This document shows positions 17,800 to 30,487 of a stretch of 64,000 nucleotides of DNA, one piece after another. The notes beneath the pieces are model-generated. The model saw only the letters and a program-made list of their open reading frames with translations. It made no database searches and was not told the DNA's origin. A program made the position numbers and the translations under genes. The DNA comes from Henriciella sp. GTDB taxonomy: Bacteria > Pseudomonadota > Alphaproteobacteria > Caulobacterales > Hyphomonadaceae. Positions within the stretch are counted from its first letter, which is position 1. Every line of letters begins with the position of its first letter. The stretch covers positions 62,001 to 126,000 of the forward strand of contig JABSPZ010000012.1 in the NCBI GenBank assembly GCA_013213785.1, read 5' to 3'.

Positions 17800-19092
17800 T
17801 TATGCCTGCTCCTGATTGGCACAAGCTTGTTGAAGCTCTTTCGCGGCGATCCCCATGACAATCAAGCCTGGCCAGATGAGATAGGAAAGAATTTCCAGGT
17901 TCTCTCCGATCGTGTAGAATGATAAAAGCAGAACCATGCCGAAGGCGATGCGACCGGCGTTAGAGCGTGCGACGGCGAGCAGTGCGAACTCTATCATGCT
18001 CCAAACCAAAGGAATTGCGAGGGCGATCGCGCCAACAACGCCTTTCACAAAGAGCAGACCGAACCATGTGTGATGGCTGCCGATCGGCATATATTCAACA
18101 GCGTGCGGCCCGCGCTCAACGACCCCATGTCCCCAGATAGGGGCCTCGTTCCACCACCGATCGATGGCGATATCGCCGAGCAACTCACGAACGCGAGTGG
18201 AGTCTGCGCGCATCGATTTCACAGAGTTTAGAGTTGCATCAACCCAATCTAAGATGCCTTGCGCCATCGGTGTCAGCATTAACAGGCCAAGTGTGGCAGC
18301 AAACCACATAGCAGGGCGCTTCGTTTCACCAACAGCAATAACAACTGGCCAAATAAACAGGGCTGCCGCGATGGCGAGCCTAGCCTTGCATGTCCAGATC
18401 ATCGCGAGCGCCGACAAGATGCCCATATATTTCCAAAACTTACGCTTATCCGACAGGGCGAAAATCAGATACATATTGCCGATCATCCCAGCGGCTGGCG
18501 ACCAAGGCGTGAAGTATCTCAGACGTGTCGACCCATCGGTTGGTTCGATAGAGTATAATTGAACCGCGAAGAATTCTGGGCCTGGTCCACCGACGATTTT
18601 GAGCGGAGACACAAATAGGACCTGCGGTAACCCAACCATCGGTGCTGCTAAAAATACGGGTGTCAGTAGAAGATTTCCAAGAGCGACCCAGCCTGCTGCG
18701 CGAATGATGGTCTCGATGCGTACATTCATACAAGCCCCAATTAATGGGAAGAGTGCGAGCAATGCCCAGCCCTTCGCCCAACCAATGGTGGACTTAATCG
18801 TTTGTCCAAGCCCCAGGTTTTGGTTCATGTGGCCGACTCCTAAGGCCAGGAGCATGACCAGCATTCCCGCGATCCAAACCCAGACACCACCTGGGATGGT
18901 TGGGACAGCGCGTGTCGCAACGGCATCGCTTTTCAGATAGACCCGAGCAAACAGTAGACCGGTCAGTCCAACCCCGAGAACAGGGCCGAGGACGTATAAG
19001 CCGCCGAACAAATAGACAAACCAAGTCGAGGCGAGCGCGACGGCGACTATAAGGTCTTCAGGAGCGCGCGAATGATAGGCAGTCTGATCCAT
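17800..19092 (-). CDS. O-antigen ligase/polymerase-like membrane protein
   Basis: A 430-residue protein with about 10-12 hydrophobic segments and one large periplasmic loop (about residues 270-350) containing RVRELLGDIAIDRWWNEAPIWGHGVVERGPHAVEYMPIGSHHTWFGLLFVKG. An Arg-rich loop with a GHG motif and an SHHTW segment is the hallmark of Wzy_C / O-antigen ligase-type proteins. In this locus it is the best candidate for polymerising the repeat units. Its start overlaps the end of the Wzz gene by 46 bp in a different frame, so the pair is coupled. Confidence 0.8.
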   Translation of the reverse strand: MDQTAYHSRAPEDLIVAVALASTWFVYLFGGLYVLGPVLGVGLTGLLFARVYLKSDAVATRAVPTIPGGVWVWIAGMLVMLLALGVGHMNQNLGLGQTIKSTIGWAKGWALLALFPLIGACMNVRIETIIRAAGWVALGNLLLTPVFLAAPMVGLPQVLFVSPLKIVGGPGPEFFAVQLYSIEPTDGSTRLRYFTPWSPAAGMIGNMYLIFALSDKRKFWKYMGILSALAMIWTCKARLAIAAALFIWPVVIAVGETKRPAMWFAATLGLLMLTPMAQGILDWVDATLNSVKSMRADSTRVRELLGDIAIDRWWNEAPIWGHGVVERGPHAVEYMPIGSHHTWFGLLFVKGVVGAIALAIPLVWSMIEFALLAVARSNAGRIAFGMVLLLSFYTIGENLEILSYLIWPGLIVMGIAAKELQQACANQEQA

Positions 19093-20423
19093 AGCAGGGC
19101 CAATCCAATCGTGTAGAATAGCATCCCGGCAATCGTGCCGAGGGTGATGAACTTTTTCGACGGGTTCGCTGGTGAGCTCGGCAAAGCCGGTATCTCAACA
19201 GTTTGCGTCAATGGGTATGACGCGAAAACGTCAGTCCGGTTTGTGTCGATCCGCGCAAGCGCTGAAGCGAAGACAGTTTCTGCGACTTGATGATCGCGGA
19301 GCAGGCCGTCGAGTTCAGTCGCGGGGACTGCCAGCTCTTCGACGCGGATCTGCGTGTTCTGAAGTTGCTCTTGCATAGCGTCGCGGCGCTTTTGAACACC
19401 GGCGAGGCCGACAGCAGCTTCTACAAGTTTCGCGATCAGAGAAGAGCGCTCGCCTTTTGAGGTGTAGTAAGCGCGGTCCAGGCTCGCAAAGTCTTCAAAT
19501 CCGATCAGCAAACGTCCGCGATTGAAGAGACCTTTGTTGAGGCCAGAAAGTTCCTGGGTCGCGGAAATGACATCAGGATGGTTTGGCCCAAAAATATCAG
19601 CCAGTTCGGAACGGGTGGTCGTAGCTTTTGAGTGCGCTTCGATCAGCGACTGGAAAGCGCTGTCTGACAGCAAAGTCAGGATATCTATCGCTTGTTCGGC
19701 TGAGATGCCGAGGATGCTAGACAGGCGCATAACTTCGCTACGAGCGACTTCCATTTCGGCCTGTGCGCGTTCCAGGTCGATCCGTAGTGTTTCTGTTTGA
19801 CCCACCAGGTCACGGAACTGTTCAACCGAAATCAAGCCGTGCTCTGTTTGGAAGGAAATGATCTTAGCTTGTGTCTCACGCACGCTCGTTTCGAACCCTT
19901 CGAGCGTTTCACGATAGGCCATTTCGCGAAGATCTTGCTCTTCCGCCCGCAGCGCATTGAGCTCAAACTCAAACGACGCCAGCCAGGCATCTGCCAAAGC
20001 CTTCGCGGCTTCTGCAGAGCTTGCCTTTACCGAGACATACATCAGCTTGGTTTGGTTCGCGAGCTTTATGCTCGGTGCGGAAACGTCTGTCAGTGGAAGG
20101 TCCAAGGTGCTCGCGACTTTTCCGCGAAGACGATAAGACTGAAGAAGCTTCTTATAGTTCTCTGTTGGGCTTAGGCTTTGACTGCCGAACGGCGAGGCTG
20201 TGTTGCTTGTGGCCTGGCCCAATGAGTCTAAGTTGACTGAGGTGCCTGATCCAGCACCTGGCAGGATCAGGGTGAAACCACTACTATAGGTTTTTGGCGC
20301 CAGGAAGTAGAAAGCCATTGCCAGAGCCAGAATACCGACCCAACCGATCGCAAGAACAGCAAGGTATCTCATCCAGCGGCCTTGGCGTGGGCCGCCTTTA
20401 AGGAAGGTCCAGTTACCGATCAT
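19047..20423 (-). CDS. Wzz/GumC-type chain-length determinant protein
   Basis: A 458-residue polysaccharide co-polymerase. It has an N-terminal membrane helix (about 20-42), a long periplasmic region rich in heptad-like helices (EAQAKIISFQTEHGLISVEQF and onwards, about 140-400), and a second helix near the C-terminus (about 425-448). No Walker motif or tyrosine-rich tail is present, so it is the GumC/Wzz part without the BY-kinase. It would set polymer length and link Wzy to the Wza exporter. The ATG at 20423 overlaps the wza stop as ATGA; the longer frame to 20525 lies inside wza and is discarded. Confidence 0.88.
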   Translation of the reverse strand: MIGNWTFLKGGPRQGRWMRYLAVLAIGWVGILALAMAFYFLAPKTYSSGFTLILPGAGSGTSVNLDSLGQATSNTASPFGSQSLSPTENYKKLLQSYRLRGKVASTLDLPLTDVSAPSIKLANQTKLMYVSVKASSAEAAKALADAWLASFEFELNALRAEEQDLREMAYRETLEGFETSVRETQAKIISFQTEHGLISVEQFRDLVGQTETLRIDLERAQAEMEVARSEVMRLSSILGISAEQAIDILTLLSDSAFQSLIEAHSKATTTRSELADIFGPNHPDVISATQELSGLNKGLFNRGRLLIGFEDFASLDRAYYTSKGERSSLIAKLVEAAVGLAGVQKRRDAMQEQLQNTQIRVEELAVPATELDGLLRDHQVAETVFASALARIDTNRTDVFASYPLTQTVEIPALPSSPANPSKKFITLGTIAGMLFYTIGLALLWIRLPIIRALLKTL

Positions 20424-21673
20424 CGGACAACACCTCCGAAAATTGCGGCATTCAGGGCAGGCGAAACCGTCTCTGACACCATGGCGATGATGTCGCGCGC
20501 ATTGGTGACGTGAGAGTCGTAACAAGCGATTGCATCGTTCGGGAGAAGCACAGGATTGAAGTCATCCCGGTCGGCGCGGCGTACGAGATCTTCGATAGAA
20601 CGCGCAATCACTTCACTTTCACCCGTGATTGGGTTGCGTGAGATAAGAACCGCCCAGCGACGCGCATTGGTGGCTTGAATGCCGCCAACACAGTTGGCTG
20701 ATACCAGACCCTGCAGGAAACGCGTTCCGTAGGGCAGCTTGGTCGAATAATCGCCGATCGCAGATGTTGCGTTTGAAGCAGCGGGACGGGTTAGGTTGGA
20801 CATGTAGACGCGAATACCGGGCGGTGTGATCCGAGACGGACGCGCGAGCGCCATTTGGAAACAACCGCGAGAAGGAACGTGGATCCGGTCACCGGCGACC
20901 AAAAGCGGGTCTTCGATCGGGCCGCCATCAATTGCGCCGGTCATGTTAAAGACGCGACGACGACCATTACGGATCAGAACGACGTTACGAACGTCTGCGT
21001 CCGGACGAACGCCAGCAGACGCAGACAGCGCTTTGCTGAGGCGGCGTTGCAGTGTGAAATCGCCAGACGCCTCAATGCGGGCAGCAGGATCTGAATTCGC
21101 ACCGCGCTCGTTGAGCAGAACGTCACCAGACTGGAAAACTGCGCCAGACACTGAAACTTGGATTGGGGCCCAGTGCAAAACATTGGTCGTGACTTGAATG
21201 AAGTTAGACTTGAAGTAACCACCGCTCACCAACAGACGCGCTATTGTGTTTTCGAGTTGGCTTTTAGTTGTTCCAGCAGCCGGGATGTCTCCGAGATAAG
21301 GCAAACGGAGGAAACCGTCCGGAGAGATGACGTAATCGCCCTGAAACCCTTCGCCGCGAACAATAGATAGACGCAGCAGGTCACCTGGTGAGAGGAGAGC
21401 TGGCTCTTCGAAAGCAGCACCGAGACCTGCATCAATCGGCTGGCCTGACAGAGCTAGATCCATGTCTTGGCACCGCGCCAGATTCTGCGAAGTTGCCGAT
21501 GTGAATAGCTTATTCTGTTTTGCATCGGACATGGACTGAAATTGCGCCTGGTACGGAGCGGCTGAGACGCTCGCGATGTTTTGCGGACGCTCAAATGAGC
21601 CGGCGCATCCAACCAGGACGAATACGAGGGCAACAGCTACCCAGCGGATGATGCTCTGAAGACCTGCAATCAT
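20420..21673 (-). CDS. Wza-type polysaccharide export lipoprotein
   Basis: A 417-residue outer-membrane export protein. It has a lipoprotein signal with lipobox VLVGC (Cys23), a poly-export domain around residues 85-185 (LLSPGDLLRLSIVRG, VISPDGFLRLPYLGDI), then SLBB-type repeats (VSVSGAVFQSGDVLL, NVVLIRNGRRRVFNM, LLVAGDRIHVPS). It should form the exit channel for the exopolysaccharide. The ATG at 21673 has GGGAG seven bases upstream; the frame is open to 21727 but that extension disrupts the signal. It is flanked by ATGA overlaps with the small gene before it and the Wzz gene after it. Confidence 0.9.
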   Translation of the reverse strand: MIAGLQSIIRWVAVALVFVLVGCAGSFERPQNIASVSAAPYQAQFQSMSDAKQNKLFTSATSQNLARCQDMDLALSGQPIDAGLGAAFEEPALLSPGDLLRLSIVRGEGFQGDYVISPDGFLRLPYLGDIPAAGTTKSQLENTIARLLVSGGYFKSNFIQVTTNVLHWAPIQVSVSGAVFQSGDVLLNERGANSDPAARIEASGDFTLQRRLSKALSASAGVRPDADVRNVVLIRNGRRRVFNMTGAIDGGPIEDPLLVAGDRIHVPSRGCFQMALARPSRITPPGIRVYMSNLTRPAASNATSAIGDYSTKLPYGTRFLQGLVSANCVGGIQATNARRWAVLISRNPITGESEVIARSIEDLVRRADRDDFNPVLLPNDAIACYDSHVTNARDIIAMVSETVSPALNAAIFGGVVR

Positions 21674-21876
21674 GACCGGCTCCCGCTTTTTCCAATCGAT
21701 CTGAAAACCGCGATGGCCCAAGGACACTCTGTGCGGACGATCTTGAGCACGCAGCCATCATCGATCATGGTTTTGACTTCGATCATGTCGCTCGCGATAG
21801 AACCTGCTTGGTTCAGTGCGCGGTGAAAGCGAGTGAGAACAGTTTCGTTTTCGATAGAAATGCAAACGCTAGCCAT
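21670..21876 (-). CDS. small conserved-position protein coupled to wza
   Basis: A 68-residue protein starting MASVCISIENETVLTRF and ending VFRSIGKSGSRS. The ATG at 21876 follows a near-perfect AGGAGG ribosome site, better than that of most genes here, and the stop overlaps the wza start as ATGA, so it is very likely translated. There is no signal peptide or membrane helix; the sequence looks like a compact alpha/beta domain. I do not recognise a family. As first gene of the export operon it may be regulatory or structural for export. Confidence 0.6.
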   Translation of the reverse strand: MASVCISIENETVLTRFHRALNQAGSIASDMIEVKTMIDDGCVLKIVRTECPWAIAVFRSIGKSGSRS

Positions 21877-22128: not shown

Positions 22129-22154
22129 TGTCCTTCCCCCTTAAACTTGGGCCA
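22129..22154 (+). repeat. left terminal inverted repeat of the IS
   Basis: It aligns with the reverse complement of the right end: TGTC, a CCCCC run and TGGGCCA are shared, with a 6-7 base mismatched spacer between. Confidence 0.8.
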
Positions 22155-22195
22155 AGTTGATCTTAGTGTTTTTGGCGGTTCAGGAAGGGGTGAGG

Positions 22196-22483
22196 ATGGC
22201 TCGAAAGCGTTATTCGGATGAGGACGTTCTGCGGTTGCTGCGGGAGATTGAGCTTTCACTAACCGAAGGCTTGGACGTCGTGAGCGCCTGCCGAAAAGCC
22301 GGTGTGTCTAACGCGACCTACTATAATTGGCGCAAGAAATTTGGCGGTGTGAGTAAGTCCCAACTGGCTGAAAAGAAAGCTCTCGAGAAAGAGAACGCCC
22401 GGCTGAAACGGATCGTCGCTGATCTGGAACTAGACAAGCTGATCCTCAAAGAGACACTCGATTATCTAAAGCCCAGGGCCTGA
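22196..22483 (+). CDS. IS3-family transposase OrfA
   Basis: A 95-residue helix-turn-helix protein (MARKRYSDEDVLRLLREIEL, VSACRKAGVSNATYYNWRKKFGG) followed by a leucine-zipper-like helix (KKALEKENARLKRIVADLELDKLIL). This is the DNA-binding part of an IS3/IS911 transposase. The ATG at 22196 has GGTGAGG upstream. The orfB frame is open from 22423, so a -1 frameshift anywhere in 22423-22483 would give the OrfAB fusion transposase. Confidence 0.92.
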   Translation: MARKRYSDEDVLRLLREIELSLTEGLDVVSACRKAGVSNATYYNWRKKFGGVSKSQLAEKKALEKENARLKRIVADLELDKLILKETLDYLKPRA

Positions 22484-22506
22484 AGCCAGCTGACCTGCGT
22501 CAGGCC

Positions 22507-23316
22507 GTGATCCACGTGCGCCAGAAGCTCGACACCTCAGAGCGGCGGACTTGCAGAACGGTCGGCATGGCGCGCTCCACGCAGCAGTACAAAACCCGCA
22601 AGGCAGAGGATGATGAAGCGCTGCGCCTGGCCCTCATCCGACTTGCTAAACAGTATGGCCGTTATGGCTACCGGAAGATTGCCAAGCTGCTCAGGCTTGA
22701 GGGCTGGGTGGTCAATCACAAGAAGGTTGAGCGGCTATGGCGCGAGGAAGGCCTGCAGCTGCCGAAGCGCCATAAGAAGCGCAAACGCCTCTACCACAAA
22801 GACAGCTCTATCATCCGGCTCCGCCCGCATTACCGCAACCATATCTGGAGCGTGGACTTCGTGCATGACAAGCTGAGCTCTGGACGGCCCTATAAGATGC
22901 TGACCGTGCTCGATGAATACACACGCGAAGCGCTGTGTGTGCATGTCGGCGCCAGGATGGGATCAGCCGATGTCCTGGAGGCGCTTTATCCACTCCTGCT
23001 CAAGCATGGAAAGCCTGATCATATCCGGTCAGACAATGGCCCAGAGTTTATCGCTGCAGGCTTACAAGACTGGTTGAGCAAAGTCGGCATCAAACCACTG
23101 CGCATTTATCCCGGTAGCCCTTGGGAGAATGGATACAATGAACGCTTCAATGGAACGCTGCGCCGTGAAATCCTGAATGCCGAGTGGTTTACCTCGCTCG
23201 ATCAGGCTCAAACCGTCATCAATACCTGGGTCAGGCAATACAATCGTGTTCGACCGCATCAGGCCCTGGGCATGCGCCCACCAGTACCGGAAACCCTACT
23301 TCAAAGTGGCCCATAA
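22507..23316 (+). CDS. IS3-family transposase OrfB (DDE integrase)
   Basis: A 269-residue catalytic subunit with the HTH_21 region (YRKIAKLLRLEGWVVNHKKVERLWREEGL) and an rve integrase core. The DDE residues are in WSVDFVHD, RSDNGPEF and ENGYNERFNG, followed by the usual YNRVRPHQALGMRPP ending. The annotated GTG start is nominal; the protein is normally made as an OrfAB fusion by frameshift, and the frame is open upstream. All catalytic residues are intact. Confidence 0.93.
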   Translation: MIHVRQKLDTSERRTCRTVGMARSTQQYKTRKAEDDEALRLALIRLAKQYGRYGYRKIAKLLRLEGWVVNHKKVERLWREEGLQLPKRHKKRKRLYHKDSSIIRLRPHYRNHIWSVDFVHDKLSSGRPYKMLTVLDEYTREALCVHVGARMGSADVLEALYPLLLKHGKPDHIRSDNGPEFIAAGLQDWLSKVGIKPLRIYPGSPWENGYNERFNGTLRREILNAEWFTSLDQAQTVINTWVRQYNRVRPHQALGMRPPVPETLLQSGP

Positions 23317-23331
23317 AGTGGGGGCTAGACA
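23307..23331 (-). repeat. right terminal inverted repeat of the IS
   Basis: It is the reverse-complement partner of 22129-22154 and lies just after the orfB stop. The outermost dinucleotide is CA on the plus strand, as expected for IS3 elements. Confidence 0.8.
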
Positions 23332-23337
23332 CTCTCA

Positions 23338-23356
23338 ATACATCAAATGACGTATG
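23338..23356 (+). promoter_or_regulatory. near-palindromic operator, copy 1
   Basis: The sequence ATACATCAAATGACGTATG is a near-perfect inverted repeat (CATAC/TCA against TGA/GTATG). It ends 60 bp before the ATG of the 237-residue lipoprotein gene. An identical 19-mer, in the same orientation relative to its gene, lies at 28751-28769 about 57 bp before the 514-residue protein gene. In both cases CCCTG and CTG follow within a dozen bases, so the match extends beyond the palindrome. It is probably a binding site for a dimeric regulator, the LuxR-type protein nearby being the obvious candidate. Confidence 0.6.
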
Positions 23357-23415: not shown

Positions 23416-24129
23416 ATGAAGTCTATATGGCCGTTGCTGTCAGCGGCGACACTCGCAGCTTGCCAGCCAGGAAGCAGCACTGCGAATGCGCCCAGTGAAT
23501 TGAATGATGCTTCTAATCGAGCGCAAGCAGTCGTTGCGGAAGACAATTGTCCATTCACTTTCCCAACACCTAATGTCCAACTTGATTCAACGAATACGCC
23601 GTCGCTGCTCGAGTTCCCGGTGTTCAACTTACATGAAACGCTCGATCTTCAGGGTGCGGATGGGAAGATCACCCAGTTTCGTGCCTGGTCGGCGCATTCT
23701 TTCAACGAAGATGGTCGACTGAATCAAAACGCCGCGATTGGCTATGTTCAAAATCTCAAAGGCTGGAAGGTGTTGTTTACGCCAGATGAAAAATTCGCGG
23801 AGTTCGATCGGATCGACAACAATGCAATATTCACCTTCGAAGCTGATACAATGATCGATGTGATCGAAGTGGATGGGATTGAGGTCGAAGTGCATTTCGC
23901 CATCGCCGAGGCCTCCCGCGTGGCGACTCTAATGCTGCCCATCAATGATGGAGAGTTTTTTCACCCCGTTTCGATTGGCGTTTATCCGGGAATGGCAGGT
24001 TGCGAAGAAACCACGCGGGCTGCGTTCGGCACCGTGATGGCGAATCTATCGCTTAATCTGGACAACCCGAACTATCATAACTCTGAAGATATTCAGCAGA
24101 TTATGGCCGACAAGCGTAAAGGGCTTTGA
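23416..24129 (+). CDS. putative lipoprotein of unknown function
   Basis: A 237-residue protein with a lipoprotein signal (MKSIWPLLSAATLAAC, Cys16). The mature part has a low-complexity linker and then a beta-rich domain with two more cysteines (DNCPFTFP, AGCEETT) that could form a disulfide. I do not recognise the family. The gene is convergent with the VWD protein gene and preceded by the shared near-palindrome, so it likely belongs to the same regulon as the minus-strand secreted-protein operon. The upstream edge is the IS right end, so its original upstream neighbour may be lost. Confidence 0.65.
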   Translation: MKSIWPLLSAATLAACQPGSSTANAPSELNDASNRAQAVVAEDNCPFTFPTPNVQLDSTNTPSLLEFPVFNLHETLDLQGADGKITQFRAWSAHSFNEDGRLNQNAAIGYVQNLKGWKVLFTPDEKFAEFDRIDNNAIFTFEADTMIDVIEVDGIEVEVHFAIAEASRVATLMLPINDGEFFHPVSIGVYPGMAGCEETTRAAFGTVMANLSLNLDNPNYHNSEDIQQIMADKRKGL

Positions 24130-24180: not shown

Positions 24181-26076
24181 TCATTGGGCGATCTCTGCAT
24201 CACTGAATGTAACGTTCGGCTGGGAGTAATTATACAACCCGAGTTGGCCGCGATTTGGGAAAACGCCGGTCGCGTCGAGGGCAATGCGTCCATTTTCCTT
24301 CACCAGGATTCGGCCCGAAGAGTATTCGATCTCGATAATGTGGTTGGTGTCATAGGTCCAACCGGGCAATCCTGCATTTGCACTCGTGATTGGAGTGATA
24401 AGCGCATCATTGCTCTGAGACCAAAACGCCGAGATCATATCATCTTTTGAAAGCGCTTCTGGTAGATATCCCTGATACCTGGATATCCGCCACCCTTCGG
24501 GAGCGTCTTGCCCCCCATAAGTGCCAACTGAATGTTTCCAATCGACAAGGACAAAGTCGACCAATTGTCCGTCGCCTTCGGCTTGAAAATTGGCGCCGAG
24601 TAAGAGGCCAATATGGTCTTTGTTGCCAGCGACGCCGGCGGAGTCGATCCGGACTCCTGTCGTAAATTTCAGCGAGCCTTCAATTTGCTCCGTCATCAGG
24701 GCGATCGGGTGTCTAAGGTTGGCGGTCACACTCGCTGAGCGTCCGGAGGCTGGAATTTCCCATGAGTTGTTAACAGCGCCAGAAAGCCCGGTCGCGGTCC
24801 ATCGCCTAAAGTCTACGACGGCTATCTCACTATAAGTGCCAAGACTGGTCTCTCTCTGGGCGTTGGTCTCGGGTTCAGCCTCTGGTTTAGTCTCCGAGTC
24901 GGGTTCGGTTTCAAAGTTGGTGCGATCATTGGAGGAGACTTCTAGGCTTATGTCGCCGAGCAGAGACATTTTGCCAGGCAGCCCAACCTGTACGTCCGGG
25001 CGTTCGGGTTTGGCGAGCCCTTCGGCAAATCTGATATCCCCCGTTAACGCAACATCATGGATACAGATAACAATCCAAGGGAAGGCCAATCGTTTGGCTT
25101 CGCAAGCCTGCTTCGCGTTCGCCATAGCTTGCTCACTGATTGCCTCGGGAAAAGTCGGATGACCTTCAACAGCGTAGTCTGCCGCTGACTTGCCTTCAGT
25201 GTACGGGAGTAGCGAGGAGTTTTCCAAGAGGCGCCATAGATCAGTATACGGACCATGTATCCAGTCTCTCTGAGTGTTGTCTTCGGGAACAATTAGGTCG
25301 TTGAGGGGGTCGCTATCATTATTGCCGAGAAGTCCGCGACTGGCTTGATCGGATAATAGGTCAATATCGATGTTCAAATAGCCGTGCAGTCCGAAGCGAA
25401 CGGACGCGACGTCTGGCTTAAGGACAACATATTCGTTTTCGCCGACTTTTGCGACAATAACGCCGCCAATGGGGCCAAGAAAGGCTTGGCTTGGATCAAC
25501 TGTTTGAGCACCGTTTATGAAGGTCCAAGCCCCGGTGCGGCTATCGAAGTTGATGACGACATCTGCGAACCGCAGGCCAATGGCTGTTTGTACACTGGTC
25601 GCACTGGTCCACGGCTCGATTCTGACATGCGCTGCGAATTCGCCGTCCTCCGTCTCAGCGAGAACAAAGTCACCTGCTGTTTGAAGGTCGTACAGGAGAC
25701 CATCAAAGGTGATGTAGTGAGGTTCACCCGAACCAGATCCGCCAGGTTTGTTTTCTGGAAAGGGTTCTGGCGGATCACAAGCAGAATCACCGAAGTCGAC
25801 CTGCTGCATCGCCTCGCAGTATTTTTCGCTCGCGGCGCATCCATTTTTCTTGGCTTGATCGCACAGTAACGTTCTGCCGGTTGCTTTACAGGCGCTCTTG
25901 AGGCGGTCGATTTCCTTCTGGCACTGATCTTTTACGTCTTTGCATTTCTTTTTGCAGGCCTCAGGGTCTGGCCCGCCGAATATATCTGGAATGAGGCTTG
26001 TTTGAGCAGAGACGGGCAGTGCGAAAACGGTAAATCCGGCGATAAGAGCGGCGACGAAGGACCTAGAAAGAGACAT
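24181..26076 (-). CDS. secreted VWD-domain protein with thrombospondin-C-like C-terminus
   Basis: A 631-residue exported protein. After a signal peptide (cleaved near VSAQT) comes a cysteine-rich helical segment (about 35-85). A von Willebrand type D domain follows at about 113-265: GEPHYITFDGLLYDLQTAGDFVLAE, then GLLGNNDSDPLND, where the usual GLCGN Cys is replaced. A low-complexity acidic linker (ETEPDSETKPEAEPE) leads to a C-terminal domain at about 430-631. Features such as HIGLLLG, VLVDWKHS, GWRISRYQG, LPGWTYDTNHIIEIEY and GQLGLYNYSQPNVTFSDAEI resemble the thrombospondin/COMP C-terminal lectin-like fold. It looks like an adhesive or matrix protein. It is last in a four-gene minus-strand operon. 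Confidence 0.7.
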   Translation of the reverse strand: MSLSRSFVAALIAGFTVFALPVSAQTSLIPDIFGGPDPEACKKKCKDVKDQCQKEIDRLKSACKATGRTLLCDQAKKNGCAASEKYCEAMQQVDFGDSACDPPEPFPENKPGGSGSGEPHYITFDGLLYDLQTAGDFVLAETEDGEFAAHVRIEPWTSATSVQTAIGLRFADVVINFDSRTGAWTFINGAQTVDPSQAFLGPIGGVIVAKVGENEYVVLKPDVASVRFGLHGYLNIDIDLLSDQASRGLLGNNDSDPLNDLIVPEDNTQRDWIHGPYTDLWRLLENSSLLPYTEGKSAADYAVEGHPTFPEAISEQAMANAKQACEAKRLAFPWIVICIHDVALTGDIRFAEGLAKPERPDVQVGLPGKMSLLGDISLEVSSNDRTNFETEPDSETKPEAEPETNAQRETSLGTYSEIAVVDFRRWTATGLSGAVNNSWEIPASGRSASVTANLRHPIALMTEQIEGSLKFTTGVRIDSAGVAGNKDHIGLLLGANFQAEGDGQLVDFVLVDWKHSVGTYGGQDAPEGWRISRYQGYLPEALSKDDMISAFWSQSNDALITPITSANAGLPGWTYDTNHIIEIEYSSGRILVKENGRIALDATGVFPNRGQLGLYNYSQPNVTFSDAEIAQ

Positions 26077-26077
26077 C

Positions 26078-26392
26078 TTAGTTTACCTCGCAGTTCTTGA
26101 CGACGGACTGCAGAAACATGGCCACTGCGAACGCTTCATCTTGGTTCAATTCAGCGGATGCCTGCGAACTATCCAGTGCCCCCGTTGTCGCAAACGTCTG
26201 CACGATAGGAACGGTTGAGGACGCAGCTAGGTCTTGCATGCACGCGACCAGCTGTGGATCGGTGTCTTCCTCATCAGTTTCGGCGTCTACTTCAGGGACT
26301 GTTGCTACCGCGGCCTGGTCGCTCTGGTTTGCGCCACCGCACGCGGAAACTAAGCCTGCGAAGAGTATGGAAATGTACCACGCAGTTTTCAT
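26078..26392 (-). CDS. small putative lipoprotein
   Basis: A 104-residue protein with a lipoprotein signal (lipobox LVSAC, Cys18) followed by an acidic linker (EVDAETDEEDTD) and a short helical domain with two cysteines (LVACMQDL, VKNCEVN), probably disulfide-linked. It ends 1 bp before the VWD protein gene, so the two are coupled. No family is recognised; its small size and position suggest an accessory or anchor for the VWD protein. Confidence 0.65.
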   Translation of the reverse strand: MKTAWYISILFAGLVSACGGANQSDQAAVATVPEVDAETDEEDTDPQLVACMQDLAASSTVPIVQTFATTGALDSSQASAELNQDEAFAVAMFLQSVVKNCEVN

Positions 26393-26425
26393 CTGCCACG
26401 CCTCCGAAAAGTTGCCACTGCTGAG

Positions 26426-27109
26426 TTAGGATTGGAGTTCCAGCAGGATGTCTTTGAAGACCGAAGGCCCAGCCAGAACATCGCCCTGTGTTGCGTAAAT
26501 GTCTTTATGCATCACCTTGGCAACGAGATTTCCCGGGAACCGCATCATGAGCCCTCGAGACATTTTATCCGTACTCGGAAAAGCACCATACTCAGCGATT
26601 GAGTAAACCGGCTGGCCGTTCAAATTGTATTTTAGGTAGTCACTGCCTTCTCGAGCGTTTGAGATATACCTTTCAAAGTTCTCCATTTCCTCGTCACTCC
26701 AAATGACCAACTCGATATTAATGATTTCATTGTCGACTGGCGGACGTGGCTGCGTGGTAACTGGATCAGGAGAAAGGTCGTCCGGCATGCGCGCGTAGCT
26801 AATATAGATGTGGTCATCCGACATGATTGGAGGTTTCAGCTCAGGAAAAACGCCAAAGCCCTCGGGTAGGCTTGGCATGAGCTTTCCGAGCGTTCCTGCG
26901 CAGCTGCGCGGAGGTAGCTCATCGCGCCATTGGTTCCACTCCATCATCGCTTCAATGCCACCCTCATAACGTCCAGAGACGGAGAGGCTATTCGCGTTCT
27001 TAAGGGCAGGAGGGCATCCAGTTGAAGATGCTTCACTGCTTACTGATGGCGAACCGCCACCACATGCGGTTAGGGCGAGGGCCGAGAGGCCTACTAGATA
27101 AGACTTCAT
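26426..27109 (-). CDS. putative lipoprotein of unknown function
   Basis: A 227-residue protein with a lipoprotein signal (MKSYLVGLSALALTAC). The mature part has a serine-rich linker and a domain containing two cysteines (STGCPPAL, RSCAGTLG). I chose the ATG at 27109, preceded by GAGAG; an ATG at 27124 would add five residues and is also possible. The spacing to neighbours is 33-40 bp. No family is recognised. It belongs to the four-gene secreted-protein operon. Confidence 0.62.
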   Translation of the reverse strand: MKSYLVGLSALALTACGGGSPSVSSEASSTGCPPALKNANSLSVSGRYEGGIEAMMEWNQWRDELPPRSCAGTLGKLMPSLPEGFGVFPELKPPIMSDDHIYISYARMPDDLSPDPVTTQPRPPVDNEIINIELVIWSDEEMENFERYISNAREGSDYLKYNLNGQPVYSIAEYGAFPSTDKMSRGLMMRFPGNLVAKVMHKDIYATQGDVLAGPSVFKDILLELQS

Positions 27110-27149
27110 TTTCGTTGCTCTCATGAAAACTTTGGCAATTTATGCGGGA

Positions 27150-28694
27150 CTAGAAACAGGCTCCCATGAGCCCCATCATGGCGCCCGTAATGCGTGGGTT
27201 AGTAGCGATTGCCATGCCTGCCTGTTCTTCGGTCATTCCCATTTCACCGGCGATCTCTGCAAATTCGGTATCTGTGAGCGATGCGCCCTCTAAGCGAACG
27301 AGCAATTTGAGTTCGTCAGCGTTTAGCTTTGAGTCGAGATGGTTCGCGGCGCATGAGCAAAACTGGGTGTTCCCAGGATCGCCATGAAGGCAAATCCGCT
27401 CATATTGATCCCGCGGTGTGCCAGTCCCGCTGAGGGTTTCATTCACGGCTACTTGGTTGGACGATGCTTCACACGTTTGCACCAAGGACTGAATTTTCGG
27501 TGTGAGGCGAAGGACAGTTGAGTCGTCTGCCTCCTGCATCAGCGAGATCATCTTTTCTGGCGGAAGTCCTTGCCCGATCACCATTCCAAGGAGTGCAGCT
27601 TTGCTCGAACCGCTTTGTGGCACGATATCCTTGTCGAATCCGTCCGAGAAGCAGCCACAAAATGCTTGATCGTACCCAGAGGCAAGGCAAGCCGCGTCCT
27701 GTTCAGCGCGCGTGATATCAGCCTGACCACCGTCTTTGATCCGCTTCGCCATTTGATATTCTTCCATGGATTCAGCTTCAGCTAATATGTCTTCCCGGCT
27801 CGGGGCGCCTTCCATTTCCCGGCGCACGGCCTCCATTTCCGCTTCCGCTAAGGCCATTTGGTTGACGGGTTTTGGGGCAGGGCGGGTGACGTCGATACTC
27901 TCCAGGCCGAGCGCTGGACCGAGGCGTTCAGCATCTGATCGAGCAAAACGTGTTCGTATTTCGCCGGTGCTGTAATCTTCGGCCGCGAGACGGGCCATGC
28001 AGTAGTTTTCTGGGTGACGCGATGTTTTTCCCATCGCCTCGTTGATGCTGGCCGCACGTCTTAACATGGCTTCCACTTCGGCCGCTGATACGCCAAAATC
28101 TGCGGCGATATGCTCTTCACTATCTCCCTTACGGGTGCGGCGGAATTGAGCCTCAAAAGTTTGCTCATCAAACAGCTTCTGCAACTCGCCCACGACGCAT
28201 AGTTGTTGTCTTTCCCAGCCGAGGGACTGTTGTGCCATCTGAAGATACTCGGCGAAAATGGCGTTTGTTGGTTTTTCAGGAACACTCGGGCGTGCAGCGC
28301 CCGGAATTACGCAGCCACGGACGCTGTTATCTTGGAAAGGATCTGCACCGGAATAGGGGTCGTAGGCGTTAGTCTGCGCTAACATGAGTCCCATTTCTCC
28401 GCCCAAACTCTCCGCGGCAATCGCGAGAGCTTCATCCATTTGATGCGTTAGACCGATATTTCTACGATACTCCTGAAACAAGAAGTCCGCATATTCCGGA
28501 GATGGACTCAAATGTGACCATGTCGCATGGAGCTTGCCGACACATGTGCAATCAATGTTGGGTGCACCGAGTGTTTGGCAGGCTGATCGATACTGTTGTT
28601 GGCGTTTCGCAAATTCATCCGATTGCGCGCCCGCGTGTCCCCCCCAGGATACCCAGCCACAAACCAAGAAAATCAAAATCAATCGATGCAGCAC
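27150..28694 (-). CDS. secreted protein with repeated C-x(9,10)-C-x-C motifs
   Basis: A 514-residue exported protein. The signal peptide is MLHRLILIFLVCGWVSWGG..., cleaved near HAGAQ. At least three cysteine units are visible: CQTLGAPNIDCTC near residue 39, CLASGYDQAFCGC near 335 and CLHGDPGNTQFCSC near 433. Each is followed by a helical segment, so the protein looks like tandem copies of a disulfide-linked helical domain, separated by long helices rich in Glu and Met. No known family or enzyme motif is seen. The start is GTG at 28694. It heads the operon, 57 bp after the shared near-palindrome. Confidence 0.65.
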   Translation of the reverse strand: MLHRLILIFLVCGWVSWGGHAGAQSDEFAKRQQQYRSACQTLGAPNIDCTCVGKLHATWSHLSPSPEYADFLFQEYRRNIGLTHQMDEALAIAAESLGGEMGLMLAQTNAYDPYSGADPFQDNSVRGCVIPGAARPSVPEKPTNAIFAEYLQMAQQSLGWERQQLCVVGELQKLFDEQTFEAQFRRTRKGDSEEHIAADFGVSAAEVEAMLRRAASINEAMGKTSRHPENYCMARLAAEDYSTGEIRTRFARSDAERLGPALGLESIDVTRPAPKPVNQMALAEAEMEAVRREMEGAPSREDILAEAESMEEYQMAKRIKDGGQADITRAEQDAACLASGYDQAFCGCFSDGFDKDIVPQSGSSKAALLGMVIGQGLPPEKMISLMQEADDSTVLRLTPKIQSLVQTCEASSNQVAVNETLSGTGTPRDQYERICLHGDPGNTQFCSCAANHLDSKLNADELKLLVRLEGASLTDTEFAEIAGEMGMTEEQAGMAIATNPRITGAMMGLMGACF

Positions 28695-28750: not shown

Positions 28751-28769
28751 CATACGTCATTTGATGTAT
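28751..28769 (-). promoter_or_regulatory. near-palindromic operator, copy 2
   Basis: On the minus strand it reads ATACATCAAATGACGTATG, identical to 23338-23356 and at nearly the same distance (57 bp) from the downstream start codon. It sits between the stop of the LuxR-type regulator and the operon it would control. Confidence 0.6.
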
Positions 28770-28783
28770 GGGCTGATTTCTAT

Positions 28784-30487
28784 TTATGAGAGAGCGGCTT
28801 TTGTGAAGGCTTCAGGTTGGACGAATATCTGAAGCTGCCCCAGATTTGCCTGCTCAAACAAAACAGCCTGGTCATTTTCCTGGCAAAACTTTGTGATCGG
28901 TTCCGTTCTAAACATTGTATTCTCTTTGCCGTGCACGAAGGCGATTTTATGTGTTTTCGCGACCGCTTCCAAACAGGGCGACCAGTCTTTCGCCCATCGG
29001 CAGATGTTGCTCACGAGTCGCGGAACGTCTTCAAAGGAATAGCTGATGGTCCGGCGCGTGAGTTGATAATACTCACCTTTCTGGCGTGTAAGCTCTGCGT
29101 CGATCGGGCTGTCTTGAAAGAAGTAATCTATGACGCGGGCCTCGCCGGATTTGGATCGCCGGAAATTTGCTGCAATGATTTTGTGTGGCGCAAGCAGTAC
29201 GTCAGGCATGTAGCGGCCTGTCATCATGATGCGTTTCATTGTTTTGGGTAGCGCCCTTATTTCTTTGTTTGAAGCGTAAGGGACTCCGGTGTCCACTAGT
29301 ACCACTTTCGCCGTACGGTTTGGATAGGCTTTAGCGAAATCCAGCGCGTACAGCCCTCCGGACGCCGTACCGGCAATGATCGCCTTTTCGATTTCCAAAT
29401 GGCTCAATAGTTCAGCATAGTCATGGCAAAGCGCTTCAGGACCAAGCGATCTCTTCCGCGATGCTGTATCCGCGCTTCCGGGTTTGTAAGGAGCGATGAT
29501 ATGCAAGCCCGCGCGCGAGCATGCATCGCGAAACCTGGCGTTCATTTCGGGGGGCATTGAAGTGCTAATCAGTAGGACAGGTTGGCCGCTGATATCTCCG
29601 TACTCGGTATATGAAATGGGTCCTGATCGAAGGTTTGCTGTACGCATGGGGAGGGTGCGGTCTTGATCTAAAGACAGATCCAAATGCGTCTCATCGAGTC
29701 CGGTAAACTGCAGCAAACTTGCTATCAGTATCACCAACTGCGTCTGGCCACTGACATTCATTTTATTGTAAATACTCGCCAGCTGCGTCCTCACAGTGCG
29801 AATAGATCGCCCACGGCGTTTAGCAACAAGGTTTAAGTCGGCGACCTCGAAAATCGATTTTATGATTTCGATTTCAGATCTAGTCAGATCATAAACACTG
29901 ACAAGGAGCTCTTCCAATTGTGGTTTCCAGATTGGCTTTGCCAGACGCAGGGCTAAGCATGTCGTCCGACGTTCCAAAGTTTCATCTAGTAGTTCAATTG
30001 GAGAGATGATTAGAACCTCAATTTCCCCATTATCACGATCGGTTTGGATCAGGATTGGGGTGTCCAATTTCCCATCAACAAGCTTAGAGACCAAACCCCA
30101 CTGCTTGGTGGATTTAAGCTCCTCTATGAGCCTTGCTGTGTCCGCATCTGGAAACAGGTCATCGAAAAGTGTGTTCGTGGCCAGAAGGGAATGGCTTGAA
30201 TTTAGAACAGCTGCAGGAACTGGTTGTCTCGCAACATATCGACTGGCGGTCTCCAGATCGGTGTGAGCCTTTTCGAAAAACTCATTCGCTCTAAGAAAAT
30301 GTTGTTTGAAAAACTTCTGCCAGGTGTCGTCCGATGTTTCAGGCGAAAAATCCTCGTCCAAATACTGGTCGAAGGCTTCGAAAAGAGATTCATACTCAGT
30401 GTAGTCCGACAGTGTCGCATACAGTCCGGAAAGAACTTGATGCGCTGTCATTGAGGAGCCTAGGGCTACCGCTTTACCGTCACTCAT
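28784..30487 (-). CDS. LuxR-type HTH regulator with degenerate alpha/beta-hydrolase domain
   Basis: A 567-residue protein. Residues about 15-190 form a helical/PAS-like region (VARQPVPAAVLNSSHSLLATN). Residues 198-262 are a LuxR helix-turn-helix (LTRSEIEIIKSIFEVADLNL, RGRSIRTVRTQLASIYNKM). Residues about 285-567 have the alpha/beta-hydrolase fold. At the nucleophile elbow the sequence is G373-T-A-S-G-G, so Ala375 stands where the catalytic Ser of G-x-S-x-G belongs. At the C-terminus GQLQIFVQP has Gln551 where the catalytic His (GH...QP) normally lies. It is probably a ligand-sensing regulator rather than an enzyme. It lies directly upstream of the secreted-protein operon on the same strand, with the near-palindrome between. 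Confidence 0.8.
   Translation of the reverse strand: MSDGKAVALGSSMTAHQVLSGLYATLSDYTEYESLFEAFDQYLDEDFSPETSDDTWQKFFKQHFLRANEFFEKAHTDLETASRYVARQPVPAAVLNSSHSLLATNTLFDDLFPDADTARLIEELKSTKQWGLVSKLVDGKLDTPILIQTDRDNGEIEVLIISPIELLDETLERRTTCLALRLAKPIWKPQLEELLVSVYDLTRSEIEIIKSIFEVADLNLVAKRRGRSIRTVRTQLASIYNKMNVSGQTQLVILIASLLQFTGLDETHLDLSLDQDRTLPMRTANLRSGPISYTEYGDISGQPVLLISTSMPPEMNARFRDACSRAGLHIIAPYKPGSADTASRKRSLGPEALCHDYAELLSHLEIEKAIIAGTASGGLYALDFAKAYPNRTAKVVLVDTGVPYASNKEIRALPKTMKRIMMTGRYMPDVLLAPHKIIAANFRRSKSGEARVIDYFFQDSPIDAELTRQKGEYYQLTRRTISYSFEDVPRLVSNICRWAKDWSPCLEAVAKTHKIAFVHGKENTMFRTEPITKFCQENDQAVLFEQANLGQLQIFVQPEAFTKAALS

What the first reader, a model, noticed from the sequence alone, without database searches (positions are those of the whole stretch)
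24181..28694. Candidate undescribed secreted system: VWD/TSP-C-like protein, two lipoproteins and a Cys-repeat protein
Four tightly spaced minus-strand genes all encode exported proteins with paired cysteines and no known bacterial system. The last joins a von Willebrand D domain to a C-terminal domain resembling thrombospondin/COMP, a pairing recalling animal extracellular-matrix proteins. With the plus-strand lipoprotein at 23416 and the dead-hydrolase LuxR regulator, this looks like a regulated surface matrix or adhesion module.
Basis: partly seen in the sequence, partly recalled or inferred. Interest (0 to 1): 0.72.

Follow-up and report, generated by a model that had tools for sequence, protein, structure and literature searches.

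The report
Dead-hydrolase LuxR regulon of exported proteins
In a marine bacterium related to Henriciella, a regulator carrying what looks like an inactive enzyme domain probably switches on, through a shared DNA site, a set of exported proteins, one of which pairs two domains best known from animal blood-clotting and matrix proteins.

Summary
Four close-set minus-strand genes encode exported-looking proteins, two of them lipoproteins. The last has a real von Willebrand D domain (Pfam E=4e-10) and a C-terminal domain that a profile matches to thrombospondins (E=3e-8). But the conserved core is not the VWD protein, which has no full-length relative in 60 other genomes. It is the LuxR-type regulator, with an alpha/beta-hydrolase domain lacking the catalytic triad. 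It sits with the 232-residue lipoprotein in 6 of 6 loci found (alpha- and gammaproteobacteria) and with the Cys-repeat protein in 5 of 6. An 18-bp dyad, ATACGTCA-WW-TGACGTAT, lies 57 bp before the operon and 60 bp before the plus-strand lipoprotein. The genome has six sites, each 56-68 bp before a protein with a signal-like N-terminus. In 105 family genomes exact sites occur only in the four with this regulator. In 11 of 26 paralogue loci scanned, another dyad precedes the regulator gene and goes with its recognition helix. Best reading: a ligand-gated regulon of exported proteins. Binding, ligand, direction and function are untested.

The parts
28784..30487 (-). REG: LuxR/GerE-type HTH regulator with C-terminal alpha/beta-hydrolase domain lacking the catalytic triad
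   Evidence: Pfam GerE and Abhydrolase_1 below cut-off; profile hits to VraR HTH and to BphD-like hydrolases; catalytic His replaced by Gln in 5 of 5; orthologues in 6 loci
28752..28769 (.). operator-like dyad ATACATCAAATGACGTAT before the CYS operon, 57 bp from the GTG start
   Evidence: no match in 100 shuffles
27150..28694 (-). CYS: exported-looking, predicted all-helical protein with three C-x(9-10)-C-x-C repeats, 14 Cys after the signal sequence
   Evidence: homologues in 6 other loci; model mean pLDDT 76, no significant PDB match
26426..27124 (-). LIP232: core lipoprotein, linked to REG in 6 of 6 loci
26078..26392 (-). LIP104: small lipoprotein with a GGAGG before its start; no relative in the loci compared
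24181..26076 (-). VWDTSP: exported-looking protein; Cys-rich N-terminus (residues 41-100), VWD (114-265), C..D...TGD motif (338-347), TSP_C-like domain (about 411-631)
23416..24129 (+). LIP237: lipoprotein with its own operator-like dyad; the G026 orthologue has the dyad too
23338..23355 (.). operator-like dyad ATACATCAAATGACGTAT, 60 bp before the LIP237 ATG

Best explanation
The locus is the home of a small regulon. REG, a LuxR-type DNA-binding protein whose alpha/beta-hydrolase domain has lost its catalytic triad, probably senses a small ligand with that dead domain. As a dimer it would bind an 18-bp dyad (ATACGTCA-WW-TGACGTAT) about 60 bp before the start codons of its targets. Targets in this genome would be the CYS-LIP232-LIP104-VWDTSP operon, LIP237, and exported-looking proteins at four other places. 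Binding most likely activates them. Their products go to the surface or outside and would act together on outside material or other cells: helical Cys-repeat protein, lipoproteins, and a locus-specific large protein (here VWD plus thrombospondin-C-like). Shown by sequence: domains, lost triad, synteny, shared dyads, their place before the genes, co-occurrence with REG, and change of dyad with recognition helix. Inferred: that REG binds the dyad, that a ligand is sensed, that the effect is activation, that the four genes are co-transcribed, and what the proteins do outside.
For: Identical dyads before both transcription units, no match in shuffles. Six sites in the genome, 6 of 6 lying 56-68 bp before an ORF with a signal-like N-terminus; reversed control pattern: 2 at up to 2 mismatches, 0 at up to 1. 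Relatives of two off-window target proteins, the PTLTI-repeat protein and the 260-residue lipoprotein, lie beside REG-CYS-LIP232 in G278. Sites within 1 mismatch in 6 of 6 REG loci and 0 of 5 comparison loci. Of 105 family genomes, strict REG (over 270 bits, next 166) in 4 and exact sites in the same 4 and no other; three of the ten exact sites, and genome G109 as a whole, were not used to make the pattern. In 11 of 26 paralogue loci another 18-bp dyad precedes the regulator gene, of three kinds that go with three recognition helices. REG and LIP232 are linked in 6 of 6 loci, CYS in 5 of 6.
Against: No binding or expression data. The pattern came partly from three of the four co-occurring genomes, so the 2e-7 chance figure is too favourable. 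REG itself has no dyad before it in the window or in G026. Two CYS loci (Ponticaulis, Glaciecola) have neither REG nor a site within 1 mismatch in the stretch held, so CYS can live without this regulator. Target proteins share no single biochemical theme. G278's site before LIP232 has 3 mismatches. At one mismatch, 15 sites occur in 13 family genomes without strict REG, against 2 for the reversed control in all 105; some recur before the same non-exported-looking gene in related genomes, so other regulators may use similar sites and only exact sites discriminate. In 15 of 26 paralogue loci I saw no upstream dyad or an unlike one.
Confidence: 0.72

Rival explanations
1. One reading: a surface matrix or adhesion module whose key part is the VWD/TSP-C protein, acting like an animal matrix protein through disulphide-linked VWD assembly and calcium or glycan binding by the TSP_C domain.
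For: Both domains are supported; all products look exported; a polysaccharide-export gene and two likely partners lie next door at 17800-21727.
Against: The VWD protein is absent from the other five REG loci; VWD occurs in 2 of 105 family genomes and TSP_C at E <= 0.001 in 1 of 105, over cut-off in 0. Other loci carry enzyme-like cargo. No calcium-binding type-3 repeat was listed by Pfam; the region before the TSP_C-like domain is an acidic linker.
Confidence: 0.25
2. A regulon for digestion of outside polymers: exported enzymes (HExxH metallopeptidase-like, SGNH-like) with binding proteins, VWD/TSP-C serving to hold substrate or enzyme.
For: HELIH and HEFTH motifs with a downstream EG.AD in two of three 833-910-residue proteins; SGNH-like GDSYGAGEG protein after a 2-mismatch site in G109 (Pfam Lipase_GDSL E=0.028, below cut-off).
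Against: The HExxH motif is missing in the Arenicella member; no Pfam or NCBIfam match for the G014 member and no PDB match for the family profile; the window's own large protein has no known enzyme domain.
Confidence: 0.3
3. The dyads belong to another regulator, and REG is a bystander that happens to sit in the same clusters.
For: Binding was not tested; REG is itself not preceded by a dyad in the window; one-mismatch sites exceed the control in genomes without strict REG (15 against 2).
Against: Exact sites only in REG genomes; dyads directly after REG in the window, G026 and G278; dyad kind goes with the REG recognition helix across subfamilies; 18-bp dyads suit LuxR-type dimers (recalled from TraR).
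Confidence: 0.08
4. Independent exported genes brought together by chance or mobile elements.
For: An IS3-type element lies just before LIP237; the candidate targets are scattered over five contigs.
Against: Synteny of REG, LIP232 and CYS across alpha- and gammaproteobacteria and a shared dyad.
Confidence: 0.03

Closest known systems
LuxR-type quorum-sensing regulators and LuxR solos (TraR, LasR type; recalled)
   Same: GerE-type HTH, dyad operator of about 18-20 bp close to target genes, presumed ligand-binding second domain
   Different: The sensing part would be a C-terminal alpha/beta-hydrolase fold, not the N-terminal autoinducer domain; the HTH lies in the middle; presence of a luxI gene was not tested
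Hydrolase-fold receptors such as plant GID1 (recalled)
   Same: alpha/beta-hydrolase fold that lost catalytic residues and serves as a sensor
   Different: Bacterial, fused to an HTH; no ligand known, sensing only inferred
PGAP-named 'alpha/beta fold hydrolase' / 'LuxR C-terminal-related transcriptional regulator' of Ruegeria, Aliiroseovarius, Martelella and others
   Same: Probably the same two-domain order; tblastn matches at 23-29% identity in the 15 of 39 plasmid records listed
   Different: Only 1 of 39 records covers 80% of the query; the Ruegeria TM1040 example shows no 8+2+8 dyad within 1 mismatch in the 350 bases scanned and has other neighbours, one a VWA protein
Bacterial VWD domain-containing proteins (Deinococcus, Nostoc, Jannaschia, Azospirillum plasmids)
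   Same: VWD; several matches run on to about residue 360, past the C..D...TGD stretch
   Different: No match covers the TSP_C-like domain; 0 of 15 plasmid records cover 80% of the query
Animal thrombospondin/COMP C-terminal domain
   Same: C-terminal domain homologous by profile
   Different: No type-3 calcium repeats seen; joined to VWD instead

Membership tests
VWD domain (PF00094) | score over gathering cut-off across the domain | tested here: met
   40.6 bits against 22.9, profile positions 2-154 of 156
TSP_C (PF05735) | score over gathering cut-off | tested here: not met
   17.7 bits against 25.6; 20.8 bits. Not filed as a member of the Pfam family, only as TSP_C-like
TSP_C (PF05735) | homology through an intermediate or a profile | tested here: met
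   G060 relative 41.9 bits; A11 profile to thrombospondin-2 E=2.7e-8
Thrombospondin | calcium-binding type-3 repeats before the C-terminal domain | tested here: not met
   Pfam scan at E <= 1 lists no such repeat; an acidic linker precedes the domain (sequence)
LuxR/GerE regulator | GerE-type HTH | tested here: met
   Pfam E=0.0012, 18.8 bits against a cut-off of 23.5, so below it alone; four-sequence profile matches response-regulator HTHs at 1.5e-5 and VraR at 3e-5
LuxR quorum-sensing receptor | N-terminal autoinducer-binding domain (name recalled) | tested here: not met
   no such domain in Pfam results at E <= 1
Active alpha/beta hydrolase | Ser-Asp-His triad | tested here: not met
   His to Gln in 5 of 5; nucleophile position A, A, S, Y, C; acid position not Asp in 4 of 5
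REG regulon | operator bound by REG | not testable with these tools
   co-occurrence and covariation only

The most novel reading that the evidence does not exclude
A family of bacterial hormone-receptor-like regulators: a dead alpha/beta-hydrolase domain fused to a LuxR HTH senses a diffusible signal, and each subfamily, with its own dyad and recognition helix, turns on its own set of exported proteins. Here these include an animal-like VWD/thrombospondin-C protein used for surface contact.
Probability: 0.3. Interest if true: 0.75.

Novelty: new variant of a known kind. Interest (0 to 1): 0.56.

Why it matters
It turns a loose set of exported proteins of unknown function into a likely regulon with a named regulator, a defined 18-bp site and a list of targets, so function can be tested directly. 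It suggests that dead hydrolases serve as sensors in a wider regulator family (32 of 105 family genomes have a match to the regulator profile at E <= 1e-25). It also shows a bacterial protein joining two domains best known from animals, apparently as replaceable cargo of that regulon.

Tried and rejected
VWD/TSP-C as the conserved core: rejected, none of the other five REG loci has it. Intact hydrolase: rejected; I first misread GTASGG as a kept nucleophile (note) and corrected this after alignment with a normal hydrolase. Structure of VWDTSP: model poor (mean pLDDT 43), so no fold search was made with it. Fold search with CYS: best E 0.5, nothing usable. Searches of solved structures with profiles of the metallopeptidase-like family, CYS and LIP232: none, best 0.028 and best 0.15. 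Viral contigs: no match for VWDTSP. Plasmids: no match for LIP232 or CYS. Anti-phage defence library: only a weak HTH match to a CARF model for REG, E=0.006. Sigma-70 promoter and terminator scan: 3 against a shuffled mean of 5.6, and 10 against 8.7 (sd 2.8), so no signal. The lipoprotein profile with its signal sequence matched 68 of 398 genomes; of the matches listed only those in G000, G014 and G278 span most of the model, the others being short N-terminal matches. The mature-only profile found only the window's own genome in 398 drawn from the phylum; the other carriers were evidently not in that draw. A 1-mismatch site in G014 C240 lies inside or near an ORF without a clear target and is not in the distance count. 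I first wrote that one-mismatch sites in genomes without REG look like chance; a recheck shows 15 against 2 in the control, so I withdrew that.

Papers: 10 searches were answered: five on the regulator, four on VWD or TSP_C (42, 48, 97, 103), one on Henriciella (87). Of these, some returned nothing; 103 listed 8 of 19 and 104 listed 15 of 17. I saw listings only, and passages of two papers: PMC2447327 (only a reference-list hit) and PMC7159879 (alpha/beta-hydrolase domains in conflict systems, no LuxR fusion in the passages). None of what I saw describes this regulator or VWD with TSP_C in bacteria; this is a small open-access search.
Full report
What is there. Minus strand, in order of transcription: REG 30487-28784, CYS 28694-27150, LIP232 27124-26426, LIP104 26392-26078, VWDTSP 26076-24181. 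Plus strand: LIP237 23416-24129. Gaps from REG on are 89, 25, 33 and 1 bp. Signal sequences and lipoboxes were judged by eye; no predictor was at hand.

Domains. VWDTSP has a VWD domain well over Pfam's cut-off and matches an Fc-gamma-binding protein in solved structures at 1.2e-11. Its C-terminal domain misses the TSP_C cut-off (17.7 against 25.6 bits). A 31% identical domain in G060 passes it (41.9 bits); that protein ends in a PEP-CTERM or VPLPA-CTERM-like tail just below cut-off. The profile of the two finds thrombospondin-2 and -1. I therefore call it TSP_C-like. AlphaFold gave no usable model of the whole protein. CYS is predicted all-helical (mean pLDDT 76) and had no significant match among solved structures. 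LIP232, LIP104, LIP237 and CYS have no Pfam or NCBIfam match over cut-off.

Rarity of the VWD protein. VWD occurs in 2 of 105 family genomes and in 1 of 398 genomes drawn from the phylum, that one being the window's own. TSP_C at E <= 0.001 occurs in 1 of 105 family genomes, over its cut-off in none. With the whole protein, 3 of 61 genomes match, and the two besides its own match only one domain each. VWD proteins are known in other bacteria: 15 of 72,556 plasmid records match its VWD part and none covers 80% of it.

The conserved core. REG orthologues were found in six loci: window, G026 (L015), G014 (L014, cut by the contig end), G109 (L119), G278 (L054) and an Arenicella MAG (L051, a gammaproteobacterium). 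LIP232 is linked to REG in 6 of 6 (in G026 only its first part, cut by the contig end) and CYS in 5 of 6 (not found in the 20 kb of G109). CYS also occurs without REG nearby in Ponticaulis (L052) and, shortened, in a Glaciecola MAG (L050). The large exported protein differs: VWDTSP in the window, an 872-residue protein in G014 with relatives in Ponticaulis and Arenicella and a distant one after LIP237 in G026 (E=2.9e-25), and a 988-residue SGNH-like protein in G109. Two of the three full-length members of the 833-910-residue family have HExxH; the Arenicella one does not.

The regulator. REG joins an HTH of the VraR/GerE kind to an alpha/beta-hydrolase fold. Aligned with a normal hydrolase from G014, the nucleophile position reads A, A, S, Y, C, the acid position is Asp only in Arenicella, and the His is Gln in 5 of 5 full-length orthologues. 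None has the full triad. In 14 of 14 sampled paralogues the aligned column holds no His either, though in G067 a His lies two residues away.

The operator. I saw the same 19 bases, ATACATCAAATGACGTATG, before CYS and before LIP237. In the window there are two matches within 3 mismatches, none in 100 shuffles. In the whole genome the dyad within 2 mismatches occurs six times, and the reversed control twice. The four others lie before an exported-looking 168-residue protein followed by a PTLTI-repeat protein (C39 and, near-identical, C4), a 260-residue lipoprotein (C11) and an exported-looking 425-residue protein (C28). On C28 a truncated REG copy of about 97 residues sits just before the site, beside a transposase. 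In G278, relatives of the PTLTI-repeat protein and of the 260-residue lipoprotein lie beside REG-CYS-LIP232 by phmmer; a 201-residue protein there resembles the 168-residue one by eye and place only, with no phmmer match. I took 17 site-to-start distances (16 sites, one shared by two divergent genes): 13 printed and four counted by me on its output. They run from 45 to 87 bp; 15 of 17 are 55-69 bp. One of these sites (G278, before LIP232) has 3 mismatches and one (G109, before the SGNH-like gene) has 2.

Controls. Within one mismatch of ATRCRTCAWWTGAYGYAT there is a site in 6 of 6 REG loci and in 0 of 5 comparison loci; simulated sequences gave 0.00-0.05 per locus. In 105 family genomes exact sites are in G000 (6), G014 (2), G026 (1) and G109 (1) and nowhere else. 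Strict REG orthologues (275-968 bits, next 166) are in the same four. The chance of the same four is 2e-7, but the pattern was made from sites in G000, G014 and G026 among others, so this is too favourable; G109 and the sites G026:C8 and G014:C101 are new. Seventeen one-mismatch sites also occur: one each in G014 and G026, and 15 in 13 genomes without strict REG, against 2 for the reversed control in all 105 genomes. This excess counts against specificity at one mismatch: three of the 15 are one sequence before the same kind of gene in G066, G072 and G082, and in the 13 of 15 I looked at few are followed by a signal-like start.

Covariation. One search lists 35 matches to paralogous regulators; the 26 with loci (91-166 bits) were scanned, the other 9 were not. 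Five carry ATCATCAA-NN-TTGATGAT upstream (G009, G011, G019, G021, G025; G019 and G021 with one mismatched pair). Four carry ATATGTCA-NN-TGACATAT (G030, G107, G108, G112). Two carry ATCACCC-N4-GGGTGAT (G035, G114). The first script misplaced the starts of G025 and G035; one search placed them. Their recognition helices read ATVR(T/S)Q, RTVRLQ and DTLKTQ, against RTVRTQ in the window's family. The subfamily with RTVRLQ, closest in helix, has a half-site one base from the window's. The other 15 of 26 had no dyad or an unlike one.

How it most likely works. REG binds the dyad as a dimer; its dead hydrolase domain senses a small molecule; the exported set is made together. In G014, G109, G278 and Arenicella REG lies downstream of a site in line with LIP232, which suggests self-control; in the window and G026 REG lies before the site. 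All statements on binding, ligand and direction are inference. TraR-type dyads, GID1 and hydrolase motifs are from memory.

Against the reading. Cargo is mixed, so a single function is not proven; LIP237 was found in one other genome only; the IS3-type element, its ends read by eye, stops about 6 bp before the LIP237 dyad, so expression there may have been altered.

Noticed in passing
window 22129-23332: IS3-type element (transposase ORFs 22157-22483 and 22507-23316) with matching inverted ends, read by eye; it stops about 6 bp before the LIP237 dyad.
   Followed up: partly
window 17800-21727: Polysaccharide export genes: Wza-like (Poly_export over cut-off), Wzz-like chain-length protein (below cut-off) and a membrane protein that looks like an O-antigen ligase by eye, without a Pfam match.
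   Followed up: partly
L063 2656-3489 and L064 3445-4935: Near-identical pair of exported-looking genes (168 residues and PTLTI-repeat protein), each pair with the dyad, on two contigs of the same genome: a duplication or an assembly split.
   Followed up: partly
L066 7498-9204: Truncated copy of REG (about 97 residues, C-terminal part) beside a transposase, followed by a dyad and an exported-looking 425-residue protein with an NTGSW.HDECC stretch shared with a G014 protein that also has a dyad before its operon.
   Followed up: partly
L016 9188-11269: G011 VWD protein with an N-terminal Cys/His stretch (CGTHDGCRIHDDCLDRC) that recalls phospholipase A2 (from memory); no dyad near it.
   Followed up: no
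L098, L104, L106, L109; L094, L095, L097, L100, L101; L091, L096: Three further subfamilies of dead-hydrolase LuxR regulators, each with its own 18-bp dyad upstream; their target genes were not examined.
   Followed up: partly
L122 2648-7611: Ruegeria TM1040: a distant regulator of the same build, divergent from a run of three genes, two with signal-like starts, one a VWA protein.
   Followed up: partly
L078, L079, L082 at 1501-1518: The dyad-like CTGCGTCAATTGATGCAT recurs about 35 bp before a possible start of the same kind of gene in G066, G072 and G082, which lack strict REG: perhaps the site of another regulator.
   Followed up: no
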